Of a DNA stretch of 64,000 nt, positions 51,836 to 61,656 are shown in pieces. The stretch is taken from the NCBI GenBank assembly GCA_026005055.1, contig BPKI01000001.1:372001-436000 (forward strand). Reading direction: 5' to 3'. A program made the position numbers and the translations under genes. This DNA comes from Lysobacterales bacterium (GTDB lineage Bacteria; Pseudomonadota; Gammaproteobacteria; Xanthomonadales; BPKI01). The notes under the pieces are model-generated. The model saw nothing but the letters and a program-made list of their open reading frames with translations. It was not told the origin of the DNA and searched no databases. Each line of letters opens with the position of its first letter. Position 1 is the stretch's first letter.

Positions 51836-51960
51836 CCCCACCTCCTGCTCGAGAACGACCGGACAGAGATAGGGGCGAGCCGGCGATCCTTTCAACGGGC
51901 CATGGACGTGATGGGCTGAGGCCGTTCAGCGGCTGTTGCCGACTCGACCGACGTCCCACC

Positions 51961-52031
51961 GGGGGCGAAGGCCCCCTGCGCAAGCGACGACAAGCAGACC
52001 ACGGACGCGGCCGCCGCTCGGGGCGGCCGCG
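51961..52031 (-). terminator. two GC hairpins downstream of the DUF11 gene
   Basis: CGCGGCCGCC (52006-52015) pairs with GGCGGCCGCG (52022-52031) around a 6-base loop, and GGGGGC (51961-51966) pairs with GCCCCC (51971-51976). They follow the DUF11 stop on the minus strand. No T-tract, so they may only stabilise the 3' end. Confidence 0.45.
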
Positions 52032-52043
52032 CCGTTCGTTCCA

Positions 52044-55000
52044 TCACCCAGTGCGACGACGCGCTTCGGCCACGCCCAAGCCGAGCAGCATCAGCCCCAG
52101 CCCGACGAGCGCGATCATGCCCAGGGCAGGAACCGAGCGCGGCTGCGGGATACCGAGCAGGGTGACGGTCACCGTCGAGCTGGAGCTCACCACCACATTG
52201 CCCGGAGCCGGACCCACACCCTGCGCCGTCGCCGTATTGGTGAGCGTCTGGTTGAACACGTCGGCCGAGGTAAGCACGTAGCTTCCGGTGCATACCATCT
52301 GCTGCGCAGGCGCGAGCACGGAAGGCTGCGGCGGCGCACAGACCAGAACCGGCAGCAGCGGATCGCTCACGGTCACGTTGCTCAGGGTCACCGGGCCGAT
52401 GTTGGTCACGGTGAGGGTGTAGTTGATCGTCTCACCGGCATCGCCCACGCCGTTGCCGTTGGTATCCGCGAGCGAGGCGGTCTTCACCAGCCTGATGGCC
52501 GGCCCTCCGGCGTTCGAGGTCGCCGTCGCCGAAGCCGGCGGCGCGTTCACCGATCCGCCGCCCGGCCGTGTGCCCGAGGCGTTCGCCGTGTTGGTCACGC
52601 TTCCGGCATCGACGTTCGCCTGGGTCACCGTGTAGCTGCCGGTGCAGGTGAGGGTCTGACCCGGCGCCAGGGTCGCCGGCTGCACCGGCGTGCAGGAAAG
52701 CGTCCCGAGCAGCGGGTCGGTGATCGTGACGCCGCTCAAGGTCACGTTGCCCGTGTTCGTCGCCACGATCTGGTAGTTGATCACGTTGCCCGCGGCGTTG
52801 TAGGGATTGCCCGAGGTGATCGTCTTGCTGAGCGAAAGCCCCGGGTTTTGGTTCGCCGTCGCCGTCGCCGAGGCCGGCGGGGCATTGACGGCGCCTCCTC
52901 CCGGACGGGTACCCGCGGCGTTGGCGGTATTGGTCACCACGCCGGCATCGACGTTCGCTTGCGTCACCGTGTAGCTGCCGGTGCAGGTGAGCGTCTGCCC
53001 GGGCGCCAGGGTCGCCGGCTGCACCGGCGAGCAGGAGAGCGTCCCGAGCAGCGGGTCGGTGATCGTCACGTTCGTCAACGTCACGTTGCCGGTATTGGTC
53101 GCGACGAGCTGATAGCTGATCACGTTACCCGGCGCGCTGTAGGGATTGCCCGAGGTGATGGTCTTGCTGAGCGAGAGCCCGGGATTCTGGGTAGCGGTCG
53201 CACTCGCCTGCGCCTGCGCGCTCACCGTACCGCCGCCCGGCCGCGTACCGGAGGCGGTGGCGGTGTTGTTGACGCTGCCCGCATCCACGTTCGCTTGGGT
53301 CACCGTATAGCTGCCGCTGCAGGTGAGGGTCTGGCTCGGGGCAAGTGTGGCCGGCTGCACCGGCGTGCAGCTGAGCGCGCCGAGCAGCGGGTCGGTGATC
53401 GTCACGTTCGTCAACGTCACGTTGCCGGTGTTGGTCGCCACGAGCTGGTAACTGATGACGTTACCCGGCGCGTTGTAGGGGCTGCCGGAGGTGATCGTCT
53501 TGACCAGATTCAGCGCGGCGTTTTGATTGGCGACCGCCGTCGCGGAGGCGGGCGGCGCGTTCACCGGACCGTTGGGACCGGTGCCCGAGGCATTGGCCGT
53601 GTTCGTGACGCTGCCGGCATCGACGTCCGCTTGCGTCACCGTGTAGCTACCGGTGCAGGTCAGGGTCTGGCTCGGCGCAAGGGTGGCCGGCTGCACCGGC
53701 GTGCAGGAGAGCGCGCCGAGCAGCGGGTCGGTGATCGTCACGTTCGTCAACGTCACGTTGCCGGTGTTGGTCGCCACGAGCTGGTAACTGATGACGTTAC
53801 CCGGCGCGTTGTAGGGGCTGCCGGAGGTGATCGTCTTGACCAGCGAAAGCGAAGGATTCTGCGTCGCCGTCGCCGTCGCCGAGGCGGGCGGGGCATTCAC
53901 CGGCGCACCGCCTGGGGCCGTCCCCGCGGCATTCGCGGTGTTCGTGACCGAGCCGGCATTGACGTCGGCCAGCGTCACCGTGTAGCTGCCGGTGCAGGTG
54001 AGCGTCTGCGAGGGCGCGAGCGTGGCCGGCTGCGTCGGCGAGCAGCTGAGCGCGCCGAGCAGCGGGTCGGTGATCGTCACACCGCTCAGGGTCACGTTAC
54101 CCGTGTTGGTGGCGACGAGCTGGTAGCTGATCACATCACCCGGATTCACGTAGGGATTGCCGCCGGTGATGGTCTTGGTGAGCGCGAGGCTGGGGTTCTG
54201 GTTGGCGTTCGCGGTGGCCGAGGCCGGCGGCGCGTTCACCGGACCGCCCGGACCCGTGCCCGAGGCATTGGCGGTATTCACGACGCTGCCGGCATCCACA
54301 TCCGCCTGGGTCACTGTGTAGCTACCGATGCAGGTGAGCGTCTGCGCAGGCGCAAGCGTGGCCGGCTGCGCCGGCGTGCAGGAGAGCGTCCCGAGCAGCG
54401 GGTCGGTGATCGTGACGCCGCTCAAGGTCACGTTGCCCGTGTTGGTCGCCACGATCTGGTAGTTGATGACGTTGCCCGCGGCGTTGTAGGGATTGCCCGA
54501 GGTGATGGTCTTGGCCAAGGAAAGCGCCGGGTTCTGGTTGGCCGTCGCCGTCGCCGAGGCCGGCGGAGCATTGATCGTGCCACCGCCCGGCGCCGTCCCC
54601 GAGGCATTCGCCGTATTCGTGACGCTGCCCGCATCGACGTTCGCTTGCGTCACCGTGTAGCTCCCGGTGCAGGTCAGGGTCTGGCTCGGCGCGAGGGTGG
54701 CCGGCTGCGCCGGCGAGCAGCTGAGCGTCCCGAGCAGCGGGTCGGTGATCGTCACACCGGTCAAAGTCACGTTGCCGGTGTTGGTCGCCACGATCTGGTA
54801 GTTGATCACGTTGCCCGCGGCGTTGTAGGGATTGCCCGAGGTGATGGTCTTGGCCAAGGAAAGCGCCGGGTTCTGGTTGGCCGTCGCCGTCGCCGAGGCC
54901 GGCGGAGCATTGATCGTGCCACCGCCCGGCGCCGTCCCCGAGGCATTCGCCGTATTCGTGACGCTGCCCGCATCGACGTTCGCTTGGGTCACCGTGTAAC

Positions 55001-57197
55001 TGCCGGTGCAGGTCAGCGTCTGCGCAGGCGCGAGCGTGGCCGGCTGCGCCGGCGTGCAGCTGAGCGTCCCGAGCAGCGGATCGGTGATCGTGACGCCGCT
55101 CAAGGTCACGTTGCCCGTGTTCGTCGCCACGATCTGGTAGTTGATGACGTTGCCCGCGGCGTTGTAGGGGTTGCCCGAGGTGATGGTCTTGGCCAAGGAA
55201 AGCGCCGGGTTCTGGTTGGCCGTCGCCGTCGCCGAGGCGGGCGGGGCATTCACCGGACCACCCGGACCCGTGCCCGATGCATTGGCGGTATTCACGACGC
55301 TGCCGGCATCCACATCCGCCTGCGTCACCGTGTAGCTGCCGGTGCAGGTCAGGGTCTGGCTCGGCGTGAGGGTGGCCGGCTGCGCCGGCGAGCAGCTGAG
55401 CGTCCCGAGCAGCGGGTCGGTGATCGTCACACCGGTCAAAGTCACGTTGCCGGTGTTGGTCGCCACGATCTGATAGTTGATCACGTTGCCCGCAGCGTTG
55501 TAGGGGCTGCCGGAGGTGATCGTCTTCGCGAGCGAGAGCGAGGGGCAGCCGGTGAACAGGTTGAAGCTCTGGGTGGTGGTCACCCCGGGGTGACCATCGG
55601 TCGCACCGTTGCGGGGAAACTCGGTGAGCGCAGCGGAGCTCGTCGTTCCGCCAGCCCCGCCCAGCGACTGAAGCGTCGCCGAAGCGAGTCCAGAGACCGC
55701 GACCAAGCCGCCACCACCACCGCCGCCAGGGCCCTCGGCTTCGTTGTTGGTGATGAGCTGATTGCCGCCGTTGCCGCCGTTGGCGCGAATGGTGCCGCTG
55801 AAGTTGCCCCCTCCGGCCTGGATCAGGATGGAGCCGCCCGCGCCGCCTCCGCCCGGAGCGTCGTTGTGATTCGGGACGGTGTTCGCGCCATTGGCACCGT
55901 TCGCGGAGACGGTGCCGCTGCCCACCACCGTTCCCGCCCGGATCAGGATCAGGCCGCCACCCCTACCGCCATCCCCACCCGCATTGTTGTTCATGGCACC
56001 CGCGCCACCCCCGCCGCCGAAGAAGACCCGATCGGCGAGGTTGTAGGCGAGCGGCCGACCACCCCAGCCGCCTTTCGCGCGCCGTCGGTCGCCGCCCCAA
56101 GCCGCCTGACCGGGTGCGAGCGTCGTGGCATCCTGATCGCTATTGGAAAAGGTGTAGCCGCCACGACCGCCGCCGACGTGGTTGGTATGGGTGTTCCCGT
56201 TGGCGATGTATCCCGGATCGAGAGTCCATGCGGCAGGACCGGAGACCGCGGTCGGCATGATCCCCTGTCCGCACCAGGTGATCGCCGGATTGGTGCCGTC
56301 GTAGGTCGCGGTGCCTGCGGTGCAATAAGGTGTCAGGCTCGGCGCGACGTTTCCGCCGCCGCCGCCACCCGCGTTGTGGCTGCCGCCACCGCCGCCGCCG
56401 TTGGCCGCGGCCGCCTCATCGAAACTCCCGCCCGGATTGGAAAAGGGCAGAAGCGGATAGTTGGTCGGCGGGCTGTTGTCGCTCGCAATCCCCTCGCCTT
56501 TGTGGCCGCCCGCGAGCGTGGCATTCGACGCGAAGGCGAATGCTGAAGTGCCCCCCGATGAACGGTCGTTGTTCTCCCTCACCCCTCCACGAAAGCCTCG
56601 CCCATCGGCATGGATCACCCCGTTGATGGTGAGCGTCTGATCGACGAACAGGGCGACGATGCCACCTCGCGTGCCATCCCAAGGCTGCGCCACCACCGAG
56701 CCGCCCGCCTGCACGTCGAGGTTTTGGTACTGGGGAATGCGCACGACCTGGGTGCGACCGGCGGCGAAGGCAAACTTCAAGCCGACGCAAGACGCTCCAT
56801 TACTCACCGGCAAGATCTGGATGGTGTTGCCCGAGACCCCGGCCACCGAGCGAATCTCGTAACGGCCCGCGCTGCCGTAATCGGTGACCGCACCGAAGGT
56901 GTGATCCAAGGTGGTGCTGATCGAAGCACCCGTCGCCTGGTAGATGAGGATCAGATCACCTGGGGCGAGCGGCCCGCCGCCGACGGTTTCAGGACTGTTG
57001 AGGTCGGCGATGTTGATCACCGTGATCGAAAGGTCCCCGACGCTGGCACTCGTCGCCAGCTCCGCGTACTGGTTGAGCACCGTATTGGCCGCCGTCACCG
57101 TGCGGTTGCCGTTCTTGCCCGGCTGGTAGGCCAAGCCCTCGGAAAAGGGCAATGAAGCGAGCAGAGCGAGAAAAATGAGATGAGCGATGAAGCGCAT
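52044..57197 (-). CDS. large secreted glycine-rich protein with ten DUF11 repeats and CTERM-like tail
   Basis: A 1717-residue exported protein. Signal peptide (1-24); a ~560-residue N-terminal module with VLNQYAELATSASVGDLSI, many GGGGGG loops and GGWGG, shared with the paralog at 58405-60867; then nine near-identical ~113-residue DUF11-type (Ig-like) repeats (KTITSGNPYNAAGN ... LTCTGSYTVTQ.DVDAGSV) and a tenth divergent one; finally a Pro motif, hydrophobic helix and Arg end (RSVPALG ... ARRRTG) like IPTL/PEP-CTERM tails. It is probably a long surface or extracellular adhesin/matrix protein. A perfect TTGACA at 57288-57283 (minus) lies about 90 bases upstream. Confidence 0.9.
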   Translation of the reverse strand: MRFIAHLIFLALLASLPFSEGLAYQPGKNGNRTVTAANTVLNQYAELATSASVGDLSITVINIADLNSPETVGGGPLAPGDLILIYQATGASISTTLDHTFGAVTDYGSAGRYEIRSVAGVSGNTIQILPVSNGASCVGLKFAFAAGRTQVVRIPQYQNLDVQAGGSVVAQPWDGTRGGIVALFVDQTLTINGVIHADGRGFRGGVRENNDRSSGGTSAFAFASNATLAGGHKGEGIASDNSPPTNYPLLPFSNPGGSFDEAAAANGGGGGGSHNAGGGGGGNVAPSLTPYCTAGTATYDGTNPAITWCGQGIMPTAVSGPAAWTLDPGYIANGNTHTNHVGGGRGGYTFSNSDQDATTLAPGQAAWGGDRRRAKGGWGGRPLAYNLADRVFFGGGGGAGAMNNNAGGDGGRGGGLILIRAGTVVGSGTVSANGANGANTVPNHNDAPGGGGAGGSILIQAGGGNFSGTIRANGGNGGNQLITNNEAEGPGGGGGGGLVAVSGLASATLQSLGGAGGTTSSAALTEFPRNGATDGHPGVTTTQSFNLFTGCPSLSLAKTITSGSPYNAAGNVINYQIVATNTGNVTLTGVTITDPLLGTLSCSPAQPATLTPSQTLTCTGSYTVTQADVDAGSVVNTANASGTGPGGPVNAPPASATATANQNPALSLAKTITSGNPYNAAGNVINYQIVATNTGNVTLSGVTITDPLLGTLSCTPAQPATLAPAQTLTCTGSYTVTQANVDAGSVTNTANASGTAPGGGTINAPPASATATANQNPALSLAKTITSGNPYNAAGNVINYQIVATNTGNVTLTGVTITDPLLGTLSCSPAQPATLAPSQTLTCTGSYTVTQANVDAGSVTNTANASGTAPGGGTINAPPASATATANQNPALSLAKTITSGNPYNAAGNVINYQIVATNTGNVTLSGVTITDPLLGTLSCTPAQPATLAPAQTLTCIGSYTVTQADVDAGSVVNTANASGTGPGGPVNAPPASATANANQNPSLALTKTITGGNPYVNPGDVISYQLVATNTGNVTLSGVTITDPLLGALSCSPTQPATLAPSQTLTCTGSYTVTLADVNAGSVTNTANAAGTAPGGAPVNAPPASATATATQNPSLSLVKTITSGSPYNAPGNVISYQLVATNTGNVTLTNVTITDPLLGALSCTPVQPATLAPSQTLTCTGSYTVTQADVDAGSVTNTANASGTGPNGPVNAPPASATAVANQNAALNLVKTITSGSPYNAPGNVISYQLVATNTGNVTLTNVTITDPLLGALSCTPVQPATLAPSQTLTCSGSYTVTQANVDAGSVNNTATASGTRPGGGTVSAQAQASATATQNPGLSLSKTITSGNPYSAPGNVISYQLVATNTGNVTLTNVTITDPLLGTLSCSPVQPATLAPGQTLTCTGSYTVTQANVDAGVVTNTANAAGTRPGGGAVNAPPASATATANQNPGLSLSKTITSGNPYNAAGNVINYQIVATNTGNVTLSGVTITDPLLGTLSCTPVQPATLAPGQTLTCTGSYTVTQANVDAGSVTNTANASGTRPGGGSVNAPPASATATSNAGGPAIRLVKTASLADTNGNGVGDAGETINYTLTVTNIGPVTLSNVTVSDPLLPVLVCAPPQPSVLAPAQQMVCTGSYVLTSADVFNQTLTNTATAQGVGPAPGNVVVSSSSTVTVTLLGIPQPRSVPALGMIALVGLGLMLLGLGVAEARRRTG
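52525..55547 (-). repeat. nine tandem DUF11 coding repeats (~336-340 bp)
   Basis: Nine in-frame repeats of about 112-113 codons. By eye, blocks are exactly shared between units, for example 54469-54647 with 54808-54986 (179 bp), and about 136 bp around 53380-53515 with 53715-53850. Different pairs share different blocks, a mosaic that suggests recent recombination among units. Confidence 0.92.
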
Positions 57198-57256: not shown

Positions 57257-57299
57257 ATGATACAGGATGAAAGTTGGATGATTGTCAAAGTTTGTGACA
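57257..57299 (-). promoter_or_regulatory. candidate promoter/dyad upstream of the DUF11 gene
   Basis: On the minus strand a perfect TTGACA (57288-57283) is followed by TATCAT (57262-57257) 20 bases on, a poor spacing. It overlaps an inverted repeat TGTCA-N7-TGACA (57283-57299), a possible operator, also shared with the divergent radical SAM gene at 57365. Confidence 0.35.
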
Positions 57300-57364
57300 G
57301 GAACCATGAAAGCTTTCCTGCGGGCGATGTCTCAACTGATCCGGCAACGGGGTGCGGCACCCTC

Positions 57365-58393
57365 ATGAAGGGGCGAGGCGCCATCGGTAATCCCCCGGGG
57401 CGATTCGAATCGTCGTGGCGCGAGCGCGACGACGCGGAAGCGGAAAACACGCGACGCACCGAGCTCCGCCACGAACAGGCGCGCGAGGTGCTCTCGGCGA
57501 ACGACTCCCCCGACCTCCCCTTCGAGCGGGCGCTCAACCCCTACCGCGGTTGCGAGCACGGCTGCATCTATTGCTACGCCCGACCCTCGCACGCCTACCT
57601 CGGCCTTTCCCCTGGGCTCGATTTCGAGACCAAGATCAGCGCCAAGATCAACGCGCCCGAGCGACTCCGCGCGGCTTTATGCCAAGAAGGCTACGTGGTC
57701 AAACCGATCAATCTCGGTTCCAACACCGACCCCTACCAACCCGCCGAACGCCGGCTCGGGCTCACCCGCGCCATCCTCGAGGTGCTGCTTGAGTACCGGC
57801 ATCCGGTGAGCATCGTCACCAAGAGCGCCTTGGTGCTCCGCGACCTCGATCTGCTCGCCGCCTTGGCCAGGGAGAACCTCGTCCTCGTCGGCGTCTCGAT
57901 CACCACCCTCGACAACCGCCTGGCCGCACGCATGGAGCCGCGCGCCACCGCCCCGCACCGACGCCTTCAGACCATCGCCGAGCTCGCTGCCGCCGGGGTG
58001 CCGGTCGGCGTCTTCGCTGCCCCGATCATTCCCGCCATCAACGACCATGAGCTCGAGCGCATCCTAGCGGCCGCCGCCGAACGCGGGGCGCGCTTTGCGG
58101 GTTACACCCTGATCCGCCTGCCGCACGAGCTCAAAGCGCTTTTCCGCGAATGGCTCGAGGCGCATTGTCCCGATCGCGCCGAGCATGTTCTCTCCCTCAT
58201 CCGCCAGATGCGCGGCGGGCGCGAGAACGACTCCCGCTTTTTCCACCGCCTGCGCGGCGAAGGGCCTTACGCCGAACTCCTCGGCCAGCGCTTCCGCCTC
58301 GCCTGCAAGCGCCTCGGCCTGCAAGGCCGCCAGGCCATCCGCCTCGACACCACCCTATTCCGCCGACCCGGCGAGCAGCTTCCCCTCTTCTGA
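57365..58393 (+). CDS. PA0069 family radical SAM protein
   Basis: A 342-residue radical SAM protein related to spore photoproduct lyase-like PA0069. The 4Fe-4S cluster motif is C-E-H-G-C-I-Y-C (CxxxCxxC). N-terminus MKGRGAIGNPPGRFE is typical; a longer open frame upstream is not. The reaction is unknown; DNA repair has been suggested for the wider SplB group, without proof here. It lies between the two glycine-rich genes. Confidence 0.92.
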   Translation: MKGRGAIGNPPGRFESSWRERDDAEAENTRRTELRHEQAREVLSANDSPDLPFERALNPYRGCEHGCIYCYARPSHAYLGLSPGLDFETKISAKINAPERLRAALCQEGYVVKPINLGSNTDPYQPAERRLGLTRAILEVLLEYRHPVSIVTKSALVLRDLDLLAALARENLVLVGVSITTLDNRLAARMEPRATAPHRRLQTIAELAAAGVPVGVFAAPIIPAINDHELERILAAAAERGARFAGYTLIRLPHELKALFREWLEAHCPDRAEHVLSLIRQMRGGRENDSRFFHRLRGEGPYAELLGQRFRLACKRLGLQGRQAIRLDTTLFRRPGEQLPLF

Positions 58394-58404
58394 CGCGACG
58401 CGCT

Positions 58405-60867
58405 TCAGCGTCGAGCCATCGCAACGAGGGAGGCCAGGCCGCTCAGCCCGAGCAGCAGCACGAGCAGAACCAAGAGCTGCGGCGACACCGCCGGTACGGT
58501 GACCGGAAGCGGAAGACCCAGCGGGACCACCGCATTCGCCGTGACTTCGAGATCCTGTGCGCCGGCCCGCGCCAAGGCACGAGCCTGGTTGATGAGCTCC
58601 ATCGCAGGATTGAGATCCCCAGGCCGCACCGTGTACTCGGCTTCGCAGAGCGCACTCTCGCCGGGCAAGAGGGTAGCCGGCAAAAGCGGCGTGCAGCTGA
58701 GCAGCCCATCGAGCATGGGATCATCGATCAGCACCTGGCTCAAGGGGACCGTTCCCGTATTCTGGACGCGCAGGCGATAACGGATGCGCTCGCCCGGCTC
58801 GGCCCGCCCGCTGCCATTTCCATCCTGAAGCAGCGCTTCCTTGCTCAGCGCCAAAGCCGGTGCCCCCGCTGGGACTGCCACGGCGAGCGCCTGAGCGCGA
58901 AGCGGGCCGTAACCCCCACCGCTTTGGCGCTGGGCGGAGAGGGTGGCTTCGTTGAGGATCGAGCCATTGGCGACATCCGCAGCGGTCGTGAAATAGCTAC
59001 CCTCACAGCTCATGCTCGCCCCAGGGGCGAGAGATTGCGGTAGGCCGGGCGAGCACACGAGCCCAGGCAGCAGCGGATCGGAGATCGAGGTGATCTGAAT
59101 CGGCCGCTCGCCTGAGTTCAGCACGTTCAGGCGATAGCGGATCTCCTGGCCGGGTCCGGTATAGGGCGCGCCAGAGAGAACCTCCTTCACGAAGGAAAGT
59201 CGATCGCAGTCGGGAGAAAGCAGGCTTTGAAACCGCCTGCCTTGGCCGGCCCCGAGGAATCCGGCGGTCGCTCCATTCTCGGGAAACTCCGCGAGACTTG
59301 ATGAGCGCGTTTCGCCCGGCGGACCACCCTCCACTTCGATCTGAAGGCCTGGAGGATAGGAGCCCGTGTCGCTCGCGATCTCATAGACCCCGCCACCACC
59401 ACCCCCGCCGGGCCCGGCGCTCAGAGCGCCCGCATGAACGTGGTCGCCGCCCCGACCGCCGCGGAGGATGATCTGCCCGGCGAAGGCTGAAAGATCCCGC
59501 GCGTGGAGCTTCACCGAGCCGCCGCCTCCGCCACCACCGCCACCGCCGTCGCCTACCAGCGCCCCGCCGTAGCCGCCGCGGCCACCTTCGGCGCTGAAGC
59601 GACCGGTACCGGAGAGTCGAAGCGTCTCGACCAGGACGAAGCCTCCACCCGGACCACCGTTGCCGGCATCGGTACCCCCTCCCGCGCCCCCGCCGCCCCC
59701 GAAAAAGGCCTGACCGAAATAGTTGCCGCCGACCCAGTAAACCCCGTGGCCACCCCAGCCGCCTTTGGGGCGACGCCAATCCCCTCCCCAAGACGGGTCA
59801 CCCGGAGGCACCGAAAGGGCATCCCGATCGACGGTGGCGAGGCTATAACCGCCTCGCCCTCCCCCGGGGTGAGCTGGCCAAAGTGGGTCACCATACGCTG
59901 GATCGAGCGCCCAAGCGGGCGAAGAGCTCGCGGGAATACCCTGCCGTGCCAAACGGACGGGGGGCAGGCGTGAGTCGTACAAAATAGGCAAGGCCGTGTA
60001 TGTGGGAATGTCGATGTCGACGTGCGCCCCGCCGCCACCGCCACCGCCGCGGCTTCCACCCCCGCCGCCGCCATTGGCGGCCGGCCCTTCATCGAAATTC
60101 CCGGCCGGATTGGAAAAGGGGTAGCTACGGCCGGCATGGACGTGGGGGGGACCGCTCGCGATTCCCTCGCCCTTGTGTCCACCCGCAGGTACTGCATTGG
60201 TGCCGTAGGCGATCGGGGTCGGGTCGCCGGCGTTGCGGTCATCGGGATCGGCGAGACCTCCCCGGAAACCGCGCTCGGAAGCGCTGATTTCGCCCTCGAG
60301 AATCAGTTCCTCCGCGAGTAGGGCGATGACCCCACCGCGCTCCCCATCCCACGGCCGAGCGAGCAGCCGGGCGGCTGCGCTCACCTCCAGGCGTCGATAA
60401 GCAGGGACGCGGATCACCTGCGAATGCGCCGCCCGGAACGGTTGTCGCAAGCCCAGGCAGCTTACACCGTCGAACACCGGCTCGAGTTCGATGCGGTTGC
60501 CGTCCACCCGCGCCACCGTCCGAAGCTCGTAGTTGCCGGCGCCACCGTAGTCGCTCACCTCGCCGTACAACTCGTTGAAGTCGGAGCGAATCTGCGCCCC
60601 CCGCGCTTGGTAAAGCAAGATGAGATCACCTGCCCGGAGCGGACCGCCACCGACCGGTTCCGCGCTCACCAGCTGAGCAATGTCATCGACTTCGACGACG
60701 AGATCGCCCACGGCTGCATCGGTTGCAAGCCGCGCGTACTGATTCACGACGAAATCGCCGGAGCTGAAGCTGCGGTCGCCGTTCCGTACGGGGAAGGCCT
60801 GCGTCGCCAACGTCGGGAGGATGCAGAAGAGCGCCGTAAGGAACGAGCGAAGGAGCGGTCGCATCAT
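58405..60867 (-). CDS. secreted glycine-rich protein with two DUF11 domains and CTERM-like tail
   Basis: An 820-residue exported paralog of the 1717-residue protein. Signal peptide (LLRSFLTALFCILPTLATQA); N-terminal module with VVNQYARLATDAAVGDLV, AGDLILLYQARGA, GGHKGEGIAS and GGG loops; only two DUF11-like domains (KEVLSGAPYTGPGQE; ALLQDGNGSGRAEPGERI); tail VTVPAVSPQLL, hydrophobic helix, MARR. The N-module matches the larger protein along most of its length, while the repeat region is short and divergent. ATG 60867 has GAGG at a 7-base spacing. Surface function inferred. Confidence 0.88.
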   Translation of the reverse strand: MMRPLLRSFLTALFCILPTLATQAFPVRNGDRSFSSGDFVVNQYARLATDAAVGDLVVEVDDIAQLVSAEPVGGGPLRAGDLILLYQARGAQIRSDFNELYGEVSDYGGAGNYELRTVARVDGNRIELEPVFDGVSCLGLRQPFRAAHSQVIRVPAYRRLEVSAAARLLARPWDGERGGVIALLAEELILEGEISASERGFRGGLADPDDRNAGDPTPIAYGTNAVPAGGHKGEGIASGPPHVHAGRSYPFSNPAGNFDEGPAANGGGGGGSRGGGGGGGAHVDIDIPTYTALPILYDSRLPPVRLARQGIPASSSPAWALDPAYGDPLWPAHPGGGRGGYSLATVDRDALSVPPGDPSWGGDWRRPKGGWGGHGVYWVGGNYFGQAFFGGGGGAGGGTDAGNGGPGGGFVLVETLRLSGTGRFSAEGGRGGYGGALVGDGGGGGGGGGGSVKLHARDLSAFAGQIILRGGRGGDHVHAGALSAGPGGGGGGGVYEIASDTGSYPPGLQIEVEGGPPGETRSSSLAEFPENGATAGFLGAGQGRRFQSLLSPDCDRLSFVKEVLSGAPYTGPGQEIRYRLNVLNSGERPIQITSISDPLLPGLVCSPGLPQSLAPGASMSCEGSYFTTAADVANGSILNEATLSAQRQSGGGYGPLRAQALAVAVPAGAPALALSKEALLQDGNGSGRAEPGERIRYRLRVQNTGTVPLSQVLIDDPMLDGLLSCTPLLPATLLPGESALCEAEYTVRPGDLNPAMELINQARALARAGAQDLEVTANAVVPLGLPLPVTVPAVSPQLLVLLVLLLGLSGLASLVAMARR

Positions 60868-60935
60868 CGAGCACCTCGTGTCGGAGTCTAGTTCCTGCAC
60901 CGCAGCGGAAGGCCGCGATCCGATAGCTTCAATTC

Positions 60936-60951
60936 CGTGATGACTGTCACA
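60936..60951. promoter_or_regulatory. CRP/Clp-like dyad between the glycine-rich gene and rluE
   Basis: CGTGA-N6-TCACA matches nine of ten bases of the CRP consensus half-sites TGTGA-N6-TCACA. It lies 69 bases from the glycine-rich start and 97 bases before rluE. It may bind a CRP/Clp-type regulator, a known controller of surface traits in Xanthomonadales. Confidence 0.4.
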
Positions 60952-61047
60952 AAGTATAGGCCAGTGGTCCATGTGAACCCAAGACCGCCTCCGATCGAAG
61001 CCTGATGGCGCAATCTGCGCTTGCGCACGAGAAGGGATCACCCGCCG

Positions 61048-61656
61048 ATGTTGATCGCGTTCAACAAGCCCTACGGCGTGCTCTGCCAGTTCACCGACCG
61101 GCGCGAACCGCCGCGGCGTACCCTCGCCGAGTTCGGTTTCCCGCCGGGGGTGTACCCCGTCGGCAGGCTCGATCTCGACAGCGAGGGGCTGTTGCTGCTC
61201 AGCGACGAGGGTCCCTTGATCGCGAGGATCATCCACCCGCGCCATCCCTGGCCCAAGCGCTATCTGGTCGAGGTCGAAGGCGACATCGGCGAGGAGGCTC
61301 TACACCGGCTTCGATCCGGGGTGCTGCTTCGCGATGGGCTCACGAGGCCCGCTCGCGCTCGTCGCTTGCAGGCGCCGCCTTCTTGGCTCTGGCCGCGCGA
61401 TCCTCCCATCCGCTTCCGCAAGCGGGTGCCGACCAGTTTCATCGAGCTCACCCTGCGCGAAGGCCGCAACCGCCAGGTACGGCGGATGACGGCGGCGGTG
61501 GGTTTCCCGACCCTGCGCCTCGTGCGCACCGCCATCGGCCCCTATCGCGTCGAGGAACTGGCGCCAGGAGAATGGACGGTGCTCAGTCCGCCATCGGCTG
61601 CGCCCGTGCTTGCCAGCGCTCCTCGATCCGCGGCCGACCATCGGGACCGACGCTGA
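61048..61656 (+). CDS. rluE: 23S rRNA pseudouridine synthase RluE
   Basis: A 202-residue RsuA/RluE-type pseudouridine synthase with catalytic Asp in VGRLDLDSEGLLLL and the RNRQVRRM motif; no S4 domain, as in RluE, which modifies 23S U2457. ATG 61048 begins MLIAFNKPYGVLCQF. The last ~28 residues extend past the usual end and overlap the convergent hmuV gene by 74 bases. Confidence 0.93.
   Translation: MLIAFNKPYGVLCQFTDRREPPRRTLAEFGFPPGVYPVGRLDLDSEGLLLLSDEGPLIARIIHPRHPWPKRYLVEVEGDIGEEALHRLRSGVLLRDGLTRPARARRLQAPPSWLWPRDPPIRFRKRVPTSFIELTLREGRNRQVRRMTAAVGFPTLRLVRTAIGPYRVEELAPGEWTVLSPPSAAPVLASAPRSAADHRDRR

What the first reader, a model, noticed from the sequence alone, without database searches (positions are those of the whole stretch)
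52525..55547. DUF11 array homogenised at DNA level
Units 3 and 4 share 179 exact bases (54469-54647, 54808-54986), and other pairs share different long blocks, a mosaic pattern. Copy number probably changes by recombination, giving a length-variable surface stalk.
Basis: seen in the sequence. Interest (0 to 1): 0.5.

Follow-up and report, generated by a model that had tools for sequence, protein, structure and literature searches.

The report
Mosaic repeat stalk of surface protein
A bacterial gene for a predicted long surface protein carries nine near-identical stalk repeats that have swapped pieces of DNA with one another, an ordinary and already described way for such proteins to lengthen or shorten, although it could not be tested here whether this one actually varies between strains.

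Summary
The array lies in a minus-strand gene (52044-57197, 1717 aa); the 179-base match is exact. The nine units are 73-94% identical in DNA, and different pairs are closest in different thirds. The mosaic survives a triplet test and a simulated tree-like null; a plain runs test was discarded as unspecific. "Homogenised" is only partly right: mean silent divergence between units is 0.53, so exchange is patchy and mostly not recent.

The units are DUF7507 (CLIPPER_2, a stalk domain predicted to form intramolecular isopeptide bonds), not DUF11 proper; the inferred Lys/Asp/Asn triad is present in all. The protein also has an AgmC_N-like N-terminal module and a tail resembling an IPTL-CTERM sorting signal, just under its cut-off; the genome encodes a clear XrtH exosortase. 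A neighbouring paralogue has two units only.

Best reading: a fibrillar, Periscope-type surface protein whose array grew by tandem duplication and was patched by intragenic recombination. Current length variation is untested: no other genome of the family is held. Known kind; modest interest.

The parts
52044..57197 (-). whole gene, 1717 aa: hydrophobic leader, AgmC_N-like module, nine DUF7507 units, tenth divergent unit, IPTL-CTERM-like tail
   Evidence: open reading frame; Pfam and NCBIfam
55550..57197 (-). leader (by eye) and N-terminal AgmC_N-like, glycine-rich module (predicted beta-helix with inserted barrel)
   Evidence: NF047640 E 7.4e-53, 180 bits, below its cut-off of 275; model pLDDT 86.8; fold matches
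52503..55541 (-). nine tandem DUF7507 units, gene order u1 (starts 55541) to u9 (ends 52503)
54808..54986 (-). one copy of the 179-bp exact block: last 120 bases of u2 and first 59 of u3
54469..54647 (-). other copy of the 179-bp exact block: last 120 bases of u3 and first 59 of u4
52158..52499 (-). tenth, divergent DUF7507 unit (84 bits with the own-unit profile, against 197 or more for u1-u9)
52053..52133 (-). C-terminal IPTL-CTERM-like sorting tail (short motif, hydrophobic stretch, basic end)
   Evidence: TIGR04174 18.7 bits and 16.0 bits, cut-off 20.5
58405..61245 (-). neighbouring paralogue: same N module, two divergent DUF7507 units only; likely real start near 60864

Best explanation
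The gene encodes a long, exported fibrillar surface protein. An N-terminal AgmC_N-like module sits on a stalk of ten Ig-like DUF7507 (CLIPPER_2) domains, each probably locked by an intramolecular isopeptide bond, and the C-terminal tail is probably recognised by the genome's XrtH exosortase. The stalk grew by tandem duplication of a 339-bp unit within this lineage. Since then, exchange between units (unequal crossing-over and/or gene conversion) has copied blocks of about 60-180 bp from unit to unit and made chimeric units. Such exchange can add or remove units and so set stalk length. Shown: units, monophyly among sampled units, mosaicism, families, presence of XrtH. Inferred: surface location, isopeptide bonds, function of the N module as a tip, any present-day length change.
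For: Exact 179-bp block one unit apart. The nearest neighbour of a unit changes along its length: u3 is closest to u4 in its first third, u1 in its second, u2 in its last. Triplet test: 12 of 250 triplets at the 2,000-permutation floor of 0.0005; all 12 were retested with 60,000 permutations and 6 stayed at the floor, 1.7e-5, Bonferroni 0.004. Tree null with site-specific rates: triplets at p<=0.01, 24 observed against a mean of 1.6 and a maximum of 10 in 60 simulations; clustering of compatible sites beyond all 300 simulations. Shifting the unit phase (12 phases tried) does not remove it. Silent-only runs test p 0.004. u1-u9 form one clade in a tree of 146 units, while the neighbour paralogue's two units fall outside. 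K6, D42 and N84 are present in all 12 units of this genome; among 134 other units K in 129, D or E in 134, N in 134. XrtH 180.5 bits against a cut-off of 86. The published exemplar of DUF7507 has a Lys/Asp/Asn triad (PMC12617251, passages read).
Against: Mean dS 0.525 between units: recombination is neither recent everywhere nor complete. Similarity does not fall steadily with distance in the array (lag means 0.79-0.83), so simple neighbour-to-neighbour crossing-over is not the whole story. The tail scores below the IPTL-CTERM cut-off in both searches. The model of the units is weak (pLDDT 65.4), its best PDB matches are only generic beta-sandwiches, and neither sequence search with the units found a solved structure. 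No strain comparison was possible. The simulated null has slightly lower mean identity than the data (0.792 against 0.818) and more variable sites (174 against 146), so the longest-run and run-length comparisons are less strict than they look. The triplet test is also positive in some other, more divergent arrays.
Confidence: 0.72

Rival explanations
1. Old tandem duplication followed by tree-like divergence; the apparent mosaic comes only from uneven constraint along the domain.
For: A plain runs test is significant (p<=0.05) in 20 of 22 DUF7507-type arrays, even where mean identity is about 0.52-0.54, so clustering of shared sites is partly a property of the fold.
Against: Triplet test and tree null with site-specific rates both reject it for this array; different thirds of the same unit have different closest partners; silent-only test p 0.004.
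Confidence: 0.12
2. Only block duplications at various phases (unequal crossing-over), without gene conversion; chimeric units are junctions of duplications.
For: The 179-bp block runs across a unit boundary, and 5 of the 7 exact runs of 60 bases or more link units one or two apart.
Against: u2 and u3 agree exactly over their last 120 bases, where other pairs differ most, yet differ in the first 219, and the middle of u3 matches u1 over 105 exact bases; blocks also link distant units (u2/u9, u3/u9); none of 12 phases removes the conflict.
Confidence: 0.3
3. Selection for identical protein surfaces keeps units alike (convergence), with no exchange of DNA.
For: dN (mean 0.113) is well below dS (0.525), so the protein is under constraint.
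Against: Exact blocks include silent sites; 45 of 70 invariant-residue codons vary silently somewhere, yet u2 and u3 agree over 73 consecutive variable sites.
Confidence: 0.04
4. Assembly artefact: a collapsed or chimeric array.
For: Other arrays of this kind in the order run into contig ends (4 of 12 fetched).
Against: The genome is one 2.44-Mb contig at 99.96% completeness, the frame is open through all units, and units differ enough from each other to be told apart.
Confidence: 0.04

Closest known systems
Periscope Proteins (SasG, Rib, Sgo_0707, CdrA; PMC8201768, passages and section 7 read)
   Same: tandem stalk units longer than 50 residues and mostly at or above 80% identity, an N-terminal module, intragenic recombination expected to vary copy number
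   Different: length variation between strains, the defining feature, is not shown here; exosortase-type tail, whereas the Gram-positive examples carry LPXTG tails (recalled)
CLIPPER_2 / DUF7507 (PF24346) stalks of fibrillar adhesins (PMC12617251, passages read)
   Same: same Pfam family, ten units over the cut-off, inferred Lys/Asp/Asn triad kept
   Different: two extra cysteines per unit here, common but not universal in the other units compared; no solved structure found by sequence
AgmC N-terminal domain (NF047640)
   Same: recognisable homology over about 235 profile positions in the best stretch
   Different: 180 bits against a cut-off of 275; most other carriers found lack DUF7507 units (2 of 80 carrier frames have them) and three of six scanned end in Peptidase_C25
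IPTL-CTERM / XrtH sorting (TIGR04174, TIGR04177)
   Same: XrtH present; tail of the same layout
   Different: tail below the curated cut-off; only one other protein in the genome is above it

Membership tests
DUF7507 / CLIPPER_2 (PF24346) | profile score over the gathering cut-off | tested here: met
   987.5 bits, 10 stretches, cut-off 27
DUF7507 / CLIPPER_2 (PF24346) | Lys/Asp/Asn isopeptide triad | tested here: met
   K6, D42, N84 in all 12 units of this genome; assignment to the published triad is by position, inferred; the bond itself not tested
DUF11 / CLIPPER (PF01345) | best-matching family of the nine units | tested here: not met
   DUF7507 scores 987.5 bits, DUF11 124 bits
Periscope Proteins | tandem repeats over 50 residues at 80% identity or more | tested here: met
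   112-113 aa units; adjacent pairs 79.5-97.3% aa identity, 7 of 8 at 80% or more; the T-REKS program itself not run
Periscope Proteins | repeat number differs between strains | not testable with these tools
   no other genome of the family held
Periscope Proteins | cell-surface location with functional N-terminal domain | tested here: inconclusive
   sorting-like tail and XrtH; no location or binding data
IPTL-CTERM protein (TIGR04174) | tail over curated cut-off 20.5 bits | tested here: not met
   18.7 bits, 16.0 bits; second best in the genome
IPTL-CTERM protein (TIGR04174) | partner exosortase XrtH in genome | tested here: met
   TIGR04177 180.5 bits, cut-off 86; the pairing of the two families is recalled
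AgmC (NF047640) | N-terminal domain over curated cut-off 275 bits | tested here: not met
   180 bits

The most novel reading that the evidence does not exclude
A Gram-negative, exosortase-H-anchored Periscope-type adhesin whose stalk is a chain of isopeptide-locked CLIPPER_2 domains, kept tunable in length by patchwork exchange between units, with an uncharacterised beta-helical, glycine-rich tip resembling phage tailspikes that binds polysaccharide.
Probability: 0.15. Interest if true: 0.45.

Novelty: new member of a known kind. Interest (0 to 1): 0.25.

Why it matters
It extends the variable-length stalk idea to CLIPPER_2 arrays in a Gram-negative with an exosortase, and gives a concrete test case with chimeric units and a short, unexpanded paralogue close by. 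It also warns that clustering of shared sites alone does not prove gene conversion in such arrays: a plain runs test is positive in nearly every one (20 of 22).

Tried and rejected
A plain runs (Sawyer-type) test was at first p<0.0005, but the same kind of test was p<=0.05 in 20 of 22 arrays, including very divergent ones, so I do not rest the case on it. The triplet test is also not unique to this array: with 4,000 permutations the Bonferroni-corrected minimum was at or below 0.05 in 8 of the 21 other arrays (one of these 21, L147, had no testable triplet), including the divergent L127; this array stood at 0.062, the floor that 4,000 permutations allow for 250 triplets, and was resolved with 60,000.

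A search for the same gene in named genomes with the whole protein found nothing; with the N-module alignment it gave 79 loci, and 2 of 80 carrier frames also hold DUF7507-like units. Plasmid records: no match. Arrays from elsewhere in the order were fetched to look for copy-number change between orthologues; no clear orthologous pair was found among 12 arrays, so this remains untested.

Fold searches of the two-unit model gave no match at E<=0.001 and only middling Z values; the two sequence searches of the units against the PDB found nothing. A profile of the N module against the PDB gave nothing convincing, and Pfam gave no family above its cut-off for it.

Literature: 'AgmC' with 'gliding motility' and 'Myxococcus', and 'IPTL-CTERM' with 'exosortase', gave 0 papers; DUF7507 appears in 1 paper; a broad search on DUF11 and recombination terms gave nothing on the subject among the 12 listed of 4,661. 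PMC9210967 was read in passages only.

Full report
What is there. The array belongs to a minus-strand gene, 52044-57197, 1717 aa. From the N-terminus: a hydrophobic leader (by eye); a glycine-rich module of about 520 aa related to the N-terminal domain of AgmC (NF047640, E 7.4e-53, 180 bits, below that model's cut-off of 275); nine units of 112-113 aa; a tenth divergent unit; and a tail of the IPTL-CTERM type (TIGR04174, 18.7 and 16.0 bits, cut-off 20.5). The units belong to DUF7507, which outscores DUF11 by 987.5 to 124 bits. The whole genome has 12 DUF7507 matches, ten here and two in the paralogue at 58405-61245. That paralogue shares the N module at about 44-47% identity but has only two divergent units.

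The two 179-base stretches are identical. In gene order they equate the end of unit 2 plus the start of unit 3 with the end of unit 3 plus the start of unit 4. Pairwise DNA identity is 73.2-94.4%, protein identity 76.8-97.3%. Mean dN is 0.113 and mean dS 0.525; the closest pair, u2/u3, has dS 0.18. So most divergence is silent and old, with exact patches on top: the array is homogenised in patches only.

Is the mosaic real? A runs test over variable sites was highly significant, but it was p<=0.05 in 20 of 22 arrays of this type (this one and 21 from other genomes), including arrays at 52-54% identity. Uneven constraint along the domain is enough to give that, so I replaced it. A triplet test, which asks only about the order of sites at which a unit sides with one or the other of two candidate parents, found 12 of 250 triplets at the 2,000-permutation floor; all 12 were retested with 60,000 permutations and 6 stayed at the floor of 1.7e-5. 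Simulations on the units' own tree, with each site's estimated rate kept in place, gave on average 1.6 triplets at p<=0.01 (maximum 10 in 60 simulations) against 24 observed, and none of 300 reached the observed clustering of compatible sites. The simulated sets were slightly more diverged than the data (mean identity 0.792 against 0.818), which weakens the longest-run comparison (2 of 300) more than the two order-based ones. Rotating the unit boundary in 30-base steps did not remove the conflict. The clearest chimera is u3: like u4 or u2 in its first third, like u1 in its middle (105 exact bases), identical to u2 in its last third. The same triplet test is positive in 8 of 21 other arrays, so exchange between units looks common in this kind of gene, or the test is somewhat liberal.

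How it arose. Among 146 units (12 from this genome, 134 from other loci) u1-u9 form one clade in a FastTree tree with few columns and many unresolved forks. The paralogue has two units. The simplest history is growth from a short stalk by tandem duplication in this lineage, then exchange between units. Whether exchange is by unequal crossing-over, conversion or both cannot be told from one genome; blocks linking distant units (u2/u9, u3/u9) and internal patches favour some conversion.

What it probably does. DUF7507 was renamed CLIPPER_2 in a survey of intramolecular isopeptide bonds (PMC12617251, passages read), which gives a Lys/Asp/Asn triad for its exemplar. By position the counterparts here are K6, D42 and N84 of the unit. 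They are present in all 12 units of this genome and in 129, 134 (D or E) and 134 of 134 others. The assignment is inferred. Two cysteines per unit are also constant in this genome and common elsewhere (118 and 105 of 134). The genome encodes an XrtH exosortase (180.5 bits, cut-off 86). That XrtH handles IPTL-CTERM tails is recalled. Together these point to an exported, anchored fibrillar protein. The two-unit model shows repeated beta-strands but is of low confidence (pLDDT 65.4, pTM 0.47).

The N module. It was modelled well (pLDDT 86.8, pTM 0.89, 27 sequences). Its best matches are phage tailspikes and a capsule lyase: residues 42-156 match part of 7w1c (Z 10.4, rmsd 4.1, 87 aligned), and a longer alignment to 4ru4 (Z 9.8, rmsd 5.3, 176 aligned) suggests a beta-helix; a polyproline-II antifreeze protein is among the weaker matches (7jjv, Z 6.1, rmsd 4.4, 124 aligned). 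TM-scores of the five matches at E<=0.001 are low (0.14-0.15 of the query), so this is a lead and no more. In relatives the module is joined to different partners: Peptidase_C25 in three of six frames scanned, Ig-like Big_13 repeats in one, one DUF11 in one, DUF11 and DUF7507 with a type IX secretion tail in one. That suits an interchangeable exported module.

Setting. The order appears to be Lysobacterales: contig G010:C10 (127,949 bases) has the same length as the contig of a record titled as Lysobacterales bacterium that the N-module scan found; this is an inference. DUF7507 is found in 200 of 398 genomes searched in the order. Among 22 arrays of four or more units this one ranks third in identity between neighbours (0.836); the loci behind that comparison were mostly best-scoring matches cut to about 3.3 kb, so the rank is rough. 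Of 12 arrays fetched with longer flanks, 4 touch a contig end.

What is not known. No other genome of the window's family is held and the scan of named genomes with the whole protein found no relative, so copy number in related strains could not be compared. The defining feature of Periscope Proteins (PMC8201768; passages and section 7 read) is therefore untested, although the repeat criteria are met.

Verdict.

Noticed in passing
window 51936-56546 (+): A 1536-aa open frame lies antisense to the array gene; probably a by-product of high G+C codon usage repeated in every unit.
   Followed up: no
window 57257-58393 (+): A radical SAM gene on the opposite strand separates the two paralogues.
   Followed up: partly
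window 55550-57197 and 59227-60864: AgmC_N-like module: confidently predicted fold with tailspike-like matches and glycine-rich segments; no Pfam family above cut-off.
   Followed up: partly
L025, L026, L027: In order-level relatives the same module is followed by a Peptidase_C25 domain.
   Followed up: partly
L137 and L160: An array in another genome of the order repeats as a three-unit block of about 984 bases, with equal scores for every third unit.
   Followed up: no
window 52158-55541: Two cysteines per unit, constant in all 12 units of this genome and frequent in the other units compared (118 and 105 of 134), possibly a disulphide beside the isopeptide bond.
   Followed up: partly
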